From Candidatus Doudnabacteria bacterium (GTDB lineage Bacteria > Patescibacteriota > Doudnabacteria > UBA920), in assembly GCA_023245895.1 (NCBI GenBank), contig JAHFJJ010000010.1, forward strand, positions 1 through 44,745: DNA of 44,745 bases, read 5' to 3'. The translations under genes and the position numbers were made by a program. Position 1 is the stretch's first letter. Every line of letters starts with the position of its first letter. The notes under the pieces were generated by a model that had not been told where the DNA came from, did not search any database, and saw only the letters and a program-made list of their open reading frames with translations. Below are positions 18,098 to 18,571 of the stretch, in pieces.

Positions 18098-18160
18098 GCG
18101 GTTCAGGCAGTTGGGGGCAACGCGCCTCCGGCAGATTTTCTGCCCTGCTTGATGGATCGC
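18098..18160 (+). ncRNA. Three-way-junction RNA B, copy 1 (63 nt)
   Basis: P1 GCGGTTC+AGGCAG / CTGCTT(GAT)GGATCGC; P2 GGGGG CAACGCG CCTCC; P3 GGCAG ATTTT CTGCC. Confidence 0.75.
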
Positions 18161-18180
18161 GAAAACGATTTTCACAACAA

Positions 18181-18208
18181 CCCCGCCCGAAGCGGGGGAA
18201 GAAGGAGG
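18181..18208 (+). promoter_or_regulatory. Hairpin plus Shine-Dalgarno module, copy 2
   Basis: CCCCGC CCGAA GCGGGG then AAGGAGG. Confidence 0.7.
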
Positions 18209-18213
18209 TACGT

Positions 18214-18447
18214 ATGCCAGTTGATGACTGGGAGAAAGCTCAGTGGTATCTGAAACATGGATACACTGGGAATGCTAGGGATGTCGTTAGGCAGGGGGTC
18301 AGAAGGCGGAACGACCCGATGTCGGAAGGAGTGGCCAGGTCAATCGTGGCCGATGCCGACAGGATCGACCGCCAAGAAGAGAGGAGGAGACCAAGCGAAA
18401 ACTTGTTCTACTGTCCTTCCTGTGACTCATTCGGCTGTAGGTGTTAG
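18214..18447 (+). CDS. Small protein (77 aa) with Cys-rich tail CPSCDSFGCRC
   Basis: Strong SD 5 nt upstream; charged body and four C-terminal Cys. Confidence 0.75.
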   Translation: MPVDDWEKAQWYLKHGYTGNARDVVRQGVRRRNDPMSEGVARSIVADADRIDRQEERRRPSENLFYCPSCDSFGCRC

Positions 18448-18470
18448 TTAGGGGAAACTCAAAAAAGTGA

Positions 18471-18498
18471 GCCGGCGCACTTTTGTAAAAAAGCCGGC
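18471..18498 (+). ncRNA. Post-ORF hairpin A, copy 2
   Basis: GCCGGC GCACTTTTGTAAAAAA GCCGGC, identical to copy 1. Confidence 0.7.
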
Positions 18499-18508
18499 AG
18501 ATTTCTTT

Positions 18509-18571
18509 GCGATTCAGGCAGTTGGAGGTAGCGCGCCTCCGGCAGATTTTCTGCCCTGCTTGATGAATCGC
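18509..18571 (+). ncRNA. Three-way-junction RNA B, copy 2 (63 nt)
   Basis: P1 GCGATTC+AGGCAG / CTGCTT(GAT)GAATCGC; P2 GGAGG TAGCGCG CCTCC; P3 GGCAG ATTTT CTGCC; all stem differences from copy 1 keep pairing. Confidence 0.78.

What the first reader, a model, noticed from the sequence alone, without database searches (positions are those of the whole stretch)
18098..18571. Duplicated 63-nt three-way-junction RNA with pairing-preserving substitutions
Seen: copies at 18098-18160 and 18509-18571 are the same length and fold into a junction in which P2 and P3 abut (P1 13 bp with a GAU bulge, P2 5 bp with 7-nt loop, P3 GGCAG-AUUUU-CUGCC). Stem differences keep pairing: P1 G-U to A-U and U-G to U-A, P2 G-U to A-U. 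Unpaired differences sit in the P2 loop (CAACGCG vs TAGCGCG). Each copy precedes a tiny ORF. Inference: a structured cis element or processed small RNA family. I do not recognise it as a known class.
Basis: partly seen in the sequence, partly recalled or inferred. Interest (0 to 1): 0.88.

Follow-up and report, generated by a model that had tools for sequence, protein, structure and literature searches.

The report
Duplicated RNA junction between tiny genes
In an ultra-small-genome bacterium, two near-identical folded RNA segments sit between the tiny genes of a short, apparently valine-starvation-controlled operon, most likely to cut, protect and separate the messages; the folds are real but are so far known from this one genome only.

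Summary
Copies at 18094-18164 and 18505-18575 fold into the same three-way junction (-37 kcal/mol, z -4.7 and -5.6) and match no Rfam family. Two corrections. The duplicated unit is larger, about 113-119 nt at 92% identity, because a hairpin that follows each stop codon was copied with the junction. The "pairing-preserving" changes are weak evidence: all six differences are transitions, none is two-sided, and random transitions keep all pairs about 14% of the time. A covariance model found only these two copies in up to 389 genomes per search, and pattern scans of 85,488 species genomes and of IMG/VR gave no homologue. The junctions lie in an operon at 17534-18798: a sigma70-like promoter, two tandem leader modules with runs of valine codons and terminators (computed to fold as trp/ilv-type attenuators), three small ORFs (28, 77, 46 aa) and a terminator. 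The operon and a PaaX-like gene fill a guaA-guaB gap that is about 100 bp in two congeners. Most likely the junctions are intercistronic mRNA structures that protect, separate or process the messages; that function is inferred, not shown. A second three-way junction at 24702-24768 is different: a dispersed palindromic DNA element inserted in frame in genes, including fusA and carB of a congener.

The parts
17534..17562 (+). sigma70-like promoter TTGACT-17-TATAGT
   Evidence: consensus scan, 10 of 12 matches
17572..17628 (+). leader ORF 1, MNNKQQSIQSLVVVVSLT (four consecutive Val codons); no Shine-Dalgarno, possibly leaderless
   Evidence: sequence; modelled
17597..17694 (+). attenuator 1: Val-codon hairpin, antiterminator, terminator 17659-17684
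   Evidence: terminator scan; antiterminator duplex -21.1 kcal/mol, 10 of 2000 shuffles as good; antiterminator forms when Val codons are masked
17704..17760 (+). leader ORF 2, MLNNLLKISEVVVVVSSP (five consecutive Val codons); no Shine-Dalgarno
   Evidence: sequence
17735..17826 (+). attenuator 2, same architecture; terminator about 17791-17820
   Evidence: fold z -3.5; antiterminator -23.0 kcal/mol, 8 of 2000 shuffles as good
17841..17925 (+). long stem-loop upstream of ORF1
   Evidence: -37.4 kcal/mol, z -7.8
17926..17942 (+). pre-Shine-Dalgarno hairpin, copy 1 (ACCCG UCCGAAG CGGGU)
   Evidence: aligned with 18180-18198
17957..18043 (+). ORF1, 28 aa, CxxCx4Cx3C motif, basic
   Evidence: translation; SD AAGGAGG
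18058..18086 (+). post-stop hairpin, copy 1 (GCCGGC/GCCGGC)
18094..18164 (+). three-way junction, copy 1
18180..18198 (+). pre-Shine-Dalgarno hairpin, copy 2
18214..18447 (+). ORF2, 77 aa, ends CPSCDSFGCRC
18470..18498 (+). post-stop hairpin, copy 2
18505..18575 (+). three-way junction, copy 2
18603..18743 (+). ORF3, 46 aa, highly basic
   Evidence: translation
18743..18766 (+). post-stop hairpin, copy 3 (GCCGAC/GUCGGC: one G-C to A-U change on both sides relative to copies 1 and 2)
18773..18798 (+). intrinsic terminator of the operon, followed by a T run
16677..16710 (.). 34-bp palindrome upstream of the PaaX-like gene
16739..17410 (+). PaaX-like regulator (PF20803, Cas2-like domain)
   Evidence: Pfam E 1.1e-12
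17447..17480 (.). palindrome copy at the 5' border of the operon
18850..18883 (.). palindrome copy at the 3' border of the operon

Best explanation
The two junctions are copies of one intercistronic mRNA element in a short operon. Shown: each lies between a stop-codon hairpin and the ribosome-binding region of the next small ORF; the pair arose by duplication of the whole spacer (hairpin plus junction); the + strand is the one that folds best; the Shine-Dalgarno sequences lie outside the junctions. Computed, not shown experimentally: the operon is switched at the transcription level by two tandem leader modules in which ribosomes stalled on valine codons would allow an antiterminator to form. 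Inferred: once the operon is transcribed, the spacer is cut or trimmed, the hairpin blocks 3'-to-5' decay of the upstream message, and the junction gives the downstream message a structured, decay-resistant 5' end and keeps its ribosome-binding site from pairing with upstream RNA.
For: Stable strand-specific fold. Position between cistrons of one predicted promoter-to-terminator unit. Spacer duplicated as a unit. The post-stop hairpin recurs after all three ORFs, with a two-sided G-C to A-U change in copy 3, and the pre-SD hairpin recurs twice with its outer A-U pair replaced by C-G, so the operon looks assembled from repeated structural modules. Junctions persist in the full-transcript MFE, and SD2 and SD3 are mostly unpaired (mean paired probability 0.33 and 0.17). 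Attenuator modelling. Structured 5' ends protecting downstream operon segments are documented in E. coli (PMC5927463).
Against: No homologue, so no conservation or covariation supports a function, and a fold of this stability could be a neutral relic of local duplication. No RNA data. The small ORFs have no homologues, and their codon usage scores weakly under the window's own genes, so their coding status rests mainly on start/SD signals. Neither leader ORF has a Shine-Dalgarno sequence, and the junction fold itself plays no part in the modelled switch.
Confidence: 0.45

Rival explanations
1. The junctions are ligand- or protein-binding translational regulators, one per cistron. The P2 3' strand (GCCUCC) is an anti-Shine-Dalgarno that could pair with the downstream SD when P2 is opened.
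For: P2 of copy 2 pairs GGAGG with CCUCC, and the downstream SDs are GGAGG and GGAG. Each copy precedes an SD.
Against: The junction is about -37 kcal/mol and stays folded in the whole transcript. No alternative fold of comparable stability was seen. No conserved unpaired core can be defined from two copies, and riboswitch aptamers are normally widespread.
Confidence: 0.15
2. Neutral duplication: an intergenic spacer rich in hairpins was duplicated with cassette duplication of the small ORFs, and the junction has no function of its own.
For: Only two copies, in one locus of one genome, 92% identical over a 113-119 nt spacer. Substitutions no more pairing-preserving than about 14% of random transition sets. 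No homologue in any search.
Against: Fold energy is well beyond shuffles. Other repeated modules of the same operon show two-sided pair changes.
Confidence: 0.25
3. The junctions are mobile palindromic DNA (MITE, REP or Rickettsia-palindromic-element kind), like the unrelated junction-shaped element at 24702-24768.
For: The same genome and genus carry a real dispersed family of that shape.
Against: The finding's copies are not dispersed (2 sites, same spacer). Their duplicated unit does not end at the palindrome. Their fold is strand-specific through G-U pairs, whereas the mobile family folds almost equally on both strands (-43 and -45 kcal/mol). The sequences are unrelated.
Confidence: 0.07
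4. The structured RNA acts on RNA polymerase as a put- or EAR-like processive antiterminator that helps transcription through the operon.
For: The operon has two internal terminators near its start (second one by inspection) and many stable hairpins.
Against: The junctions lie downstream of both leader terminators, and only the final terminator follows them. No Rfam match to any such element.
Confidence: 0.04

Closest known systems
Intercistronic processing and stabilising structures of bacterial operons (structured 5' ends and protective stem-loops, e.g. PMC5927463)
   Same: Stable fold between cistrons, hairpin after the upstream stop codon, SD outside the fold
   Different: A branched junction rather than a simple hairpin; copied twice in one operon; no RNA data; known from one genome so far
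Ribosome-mediated ilv-type attenuators (e.g. ilvBNC of Corynebacterium, PMC11857589 and PMC10272879), for the operon leader
   Same: Short leader ORF with consecutive valine codons; Val-codon hairpin, antiterminator and terminator predicted as alternatives
   Different: Two in tandem; no SD on the leader ORFs; the operon encodes three orphan small ORFs, not branched-chain amino-acid enzymes
Rickettsia palindromic elements and MITEs (PMC10969869), for the other junction at 24702-24768
   Same: Dispersed, palindromic, inserted in frame in unrelated protein-coding genes
   Different: About 67 nt, perfect three-way junction, TIR-like ACCCCGTTAGAAGT ends; not the element of the finding

Membership tests
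Any Rfam family | Match to a covariance model at gathering score | tested here: not met
   Only two tRNAs in the window; nothing related up to E=10 in 17420-18900
Intercistronic mRNA-stability or processing element | Lies between cistrons of one transcription unit, outside the ribosome-binding site | tested here: met
   Predicted promoter, terminator and ORF order; SD accessibility. The transcript itself is predicted, not measured
Intercistronic mRNA-stability or processing element | Processed or protected RNA ends at the structure | not testable with these tools
   Needs RNA-seq, term-seq or 5'-end mapping
Riboswitch or other conserved cis-regulatory RNA class | Homologues across genomes with covariation and conserved unpaired core | tested here: not met
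   No homologue; zero two-sided changes between the copies
REP/MITE/RPE palindromic DNA element (for 18094 and 18505) | Dispersed copies with defined ends | tested here: not met
   Two copies only, both within one duplicated spacer
REP/MITE/RPE palindromic DNA element (for 18094 and 18505) | Strand-symmetric palindrome | tested here: not met
   + -37.2/-36.9, - -24.6/-31.0 kcal/mol
Integron attC site | R''/R' core sites (RYYYAAC/GTTRRRY) at the ends of the imperfect palindrome | tested here: not met
   By reading 18052-18176 and 18464-18590: no such pair at the element ends; an integrase was not searched for
Ribosome-mediated (trp/ilv-type) attenuator, for 17572-17826 | Leader ORF with a run of regulatory codons before a terminator | tested here: met
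   Four and five consecutive Val codons; terminators
Ribosome-mediated (trp/ilv-type) attenuator, for 17572-17826 | Mutually exclusive antiterminator that forms when the ribosome masks the codon run | tested here: met
   (computation only; duplex energies in the top 0.5% of mononucleotide shuffles; in module 1 the ribosome-free nascent RNA favours it too)
Ribosome-mediated (trp/ilv-type) attenuator, for 17572-17826 | Translated leader (start codon with SD, or a leaderless mRNA) | tested here: inconclusive
   No SD at either leader ATG; leader 1 begins about 10 nt after the -10 hexamer and could be leaderless
Ribosome-mediated (trp/ilv-type) attenuator, for 17572-17826 | Downstream genes of the same amino acid's metabolism | tested here: not met
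   ORF1-3 have no Pfam or NCBIfam family above the curated cut-off

The most novel reading that the evidence does not exclude
A previously undescribed modular operon type in which tandem valine-codon attenuators switch on a set of orphan micro-proteins (two with Cys motifs, one highly basic), each message framed by its own structured RNA, including a duplicated three-way junction with a dedicated regulatory or processing role, carried on an inserted island together with a PaaX-like regulator and its palindromes.
Probability: 0.15. Interest if true: 0.75.

Novelty: new variant of a known kind. Interest (0 to 1): 0.42.

Why it matters
Post-transcriptional control is little described in ultra-small-genome bacteria; a few literature searches here found no attenuator work in Patescibacteria, though that is not a survey. 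If the operon works as modelled, it shows starvation-sensing transcription attenuation applied to orphan micro-proteins rather than to amino-acid synthesis, with repeated RNA modules separating the messages. It gives a compact set of predictions (valine dependence, processed ends at the junctions) that can be tested in a reporter. The side finding, in-frame palindromic elements in essential genes of the same genus, parallels the selfish palindromes of Rickettsia in a distant lineage.

Tried and rejected
Rfam search, strict and relaxed: nothing. DNA similarity in 120 relatives, phages and viral contigs: only self. Covariance model R1 in 148, 50 and 389 genomes: only self. Gapped junction pattern in 85,488 species genomes: 59 stretches, and in viral contigs 4; none is supported by R1 (best 18.8 bits, partial, not at the pattern site). 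ORF2 as a truncated NusG N-terminal domain: phylum search hits include NusG at per-genome E of 3e-4 to 7e-3, and a profile scores 21.8 bits against 5.8 for the best shuffle, but that profile was built from the hits themselves. Unselected NusGs score only 7-14 bits, PDB and Pfam searches do not list NusG, and the AlphaFold model is three helices (mean pLDDT 76.5, single sequence) with no significant PDB match; so it was dropped. ORF2 and ORF3 in 5.8 billion proteins: no homologue apart from themselves; ORF2 in plasmids and phages: none. PaaX-like protein in genome contigs: no relative confirmed. The - strand reading of the junction is weaker.

Full report
Setting. The window is contig C40 of a 1.14-Mb, 91%-complete genome. 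The finding lies in a 2.5-kb gap between convergent guaA (15002-16648, +) and guaB (19140-20219, -).

The observation. Both copies are present and fold as stated. The 71-nt versions reach -37.2 and -36.9 kcal/mol with z-scores of -4.65 and -5.64, and remain folded in the MFE of the predicted 1.24-kb transcript. No Rfam family matches. The two copies belong to a larger duplicated spacer (18052-18170 against 18464-18576, 92% identity) that also contains a hairpin just after the preceding ORF. The stem differences that keep pairing are all one-sided G-U/Watson-Crick interchanges: zero pairs with two-sided change, and a 13.8% chance under random transitions. The fold rests on thermodynamics and strand asymmetry (+ -37 kcal/mol; - -25 and -31), not on covariation.

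Surroundings. A sigma70-like promoter lies at 17534-17562. Two modules of similar architecture follow. Each has a short ORF with four or five consecutive valine codons, a hairpin made by the valine codons, a small 10-nt-loop hairpin and an intrinsic terminator. The segment after the valine codons can pair with the 5' arm of the terminator (-21.1 and -23.0 kcal/mol; 10 and 8 of 2000 mononucleotide shuffles as strong). With the nascent RNA ending before the last terminator arm, masking 9 or more bases from the start of the valine run makes this antiterminator the MFE fold in both modules. For module 1 the ribosome-free nascent RNA also shows the antiterminator fold, so the model is less clean there. 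In the full-length module the terminator remains the MFE even with the ribosome mask, so the switch has to be kinetic, as in classical attenuation. The anatomy is that of ilv-type attenuators such as ilvBNC of Corynebacterium, whose leader MTIIRLVVVTARRLP also has consecutive valines (PMC11857589). Weak points: no Shine-Dalgarno at either leader, and no amino-acid gene downstream.

The operon proper has three ORFs with good Shine-Dalgarno sequences: 28 aa with CxxCx4Cx3C, 77 aa ending in CxxCx4CxC, and 46 aa, highly basic. ORF2 and ORF3 have no homologue in the protein collection searched, and none of the three matches a Pfam or NCBIfam family above the cut-off (ORF1 was searched only in family libraries). 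Each ORF is followed by the same post-stop hairpin, whose third copy carries a two-sided G-C to A-U change, and ORF1 and ORF2 are preceded by the same pre-SD hairpin with an A-U to C-G change. So the operon looks assembled from repeated modules, of which the junction is one.

Origin. In two congeners the guaA-guaB gap is about 100 bp; in a third it is about 1.1 kb with unrelated content. The PaaX-like gene and the operon therefore look like lineage-specific insertions. A 34-bp palindrome borders the PaaX-like gene and the operon on both sides (16677, 17447, 18850), occurs once more in the genome (C30:24028), and in degenerate form flanks the PaaX orthologue of congener G004, where no small-ORF operon follows.

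Search for relatives of the junction. Model R1 found only the two copies in 148 relatives, 50 class members and 389 genomes drawn across the phylum (stricter filters there lose weak matches). A gapped pattern in 85,488 species genomes and in IMG/VR gave 59 and 4 stretches, none supported by R1.

Mechanism. The best-supported reading is an intercistronic element: the hairpin guards the upstream 3' end and the junction guards and isolates the downstream 5' end, with ribosome-binding sites left outside. E. coli precedents exist (PMC5927463). Function is inferred. A neutral relic of cassette duplication is the main rival.

A different junction in the same window. At 24702-24768 (-) a 67-nt perfect three-way junction lies in frame in a CAP-domain-like ORF (domain named by eye, not by a family search). 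Model R2 found relatives in 6 of 22 family genomes, several in frame in genes, including fusA and carB of G004 (named from their sequence), with six two-sided pair changes in three sequences. Further copies share only the ACCCCGTTAGAAGT inverted ends. It folds about equally on both strands. It behaves like mobile palindromic DNA of the Rickettsia-palindromic-element kind (PMC10969869) and serves as a contrast: the finding's copies show none of those features.

Noticed in passing
24702-24768 (-); G004 loci L062/L007, L068/L008, L070; G001 L064; G002 L065: Dispersed 67-nt three-way-junction palindromic element with compensatory changes, inserted in frame in a CAP-domain-like ORF here and in fusA and carB of a congener; variants share only ACCCCGTTAGAAGT terminal inverted repeats. 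Rickettsia-palindromic-element-like.
   Followed up: partly
17534-17826: Two tandem valine-codon leader modules with terminators that compute as trp/ilv-type attenuators upstream of orphan small ORFs.
   Followed up: yes
16677-16710, 17447-17480, 18850-18883; G000:C30:24028-24059; L030: 34-bp palindrome flanking a PaaX-like (Cas2-like domain) gene and the small-ORF operon, also flanking the PaaX orthologue in G004 in degenerate form; operator or mobile-unit end.
   Followed up: partly
genus-wide, e.g. L011-L029: Each genome of the genus encodes several PaaX-like Cas2-domain proteins (3 to 8 matches per genome).
   Followed up: no
L057:2226-3963: Another small gene cluster with strong Shine-Dalgarno sequences, ending in a terminator-like hairpin plus the same palindrome, between ndk-like and spoT-like genes.
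   Followed up: no
5251-5320, 33946-34010: Long near-perfect hairpins (17-18 bp stems) in intergenic sequence.
   Followed up: no
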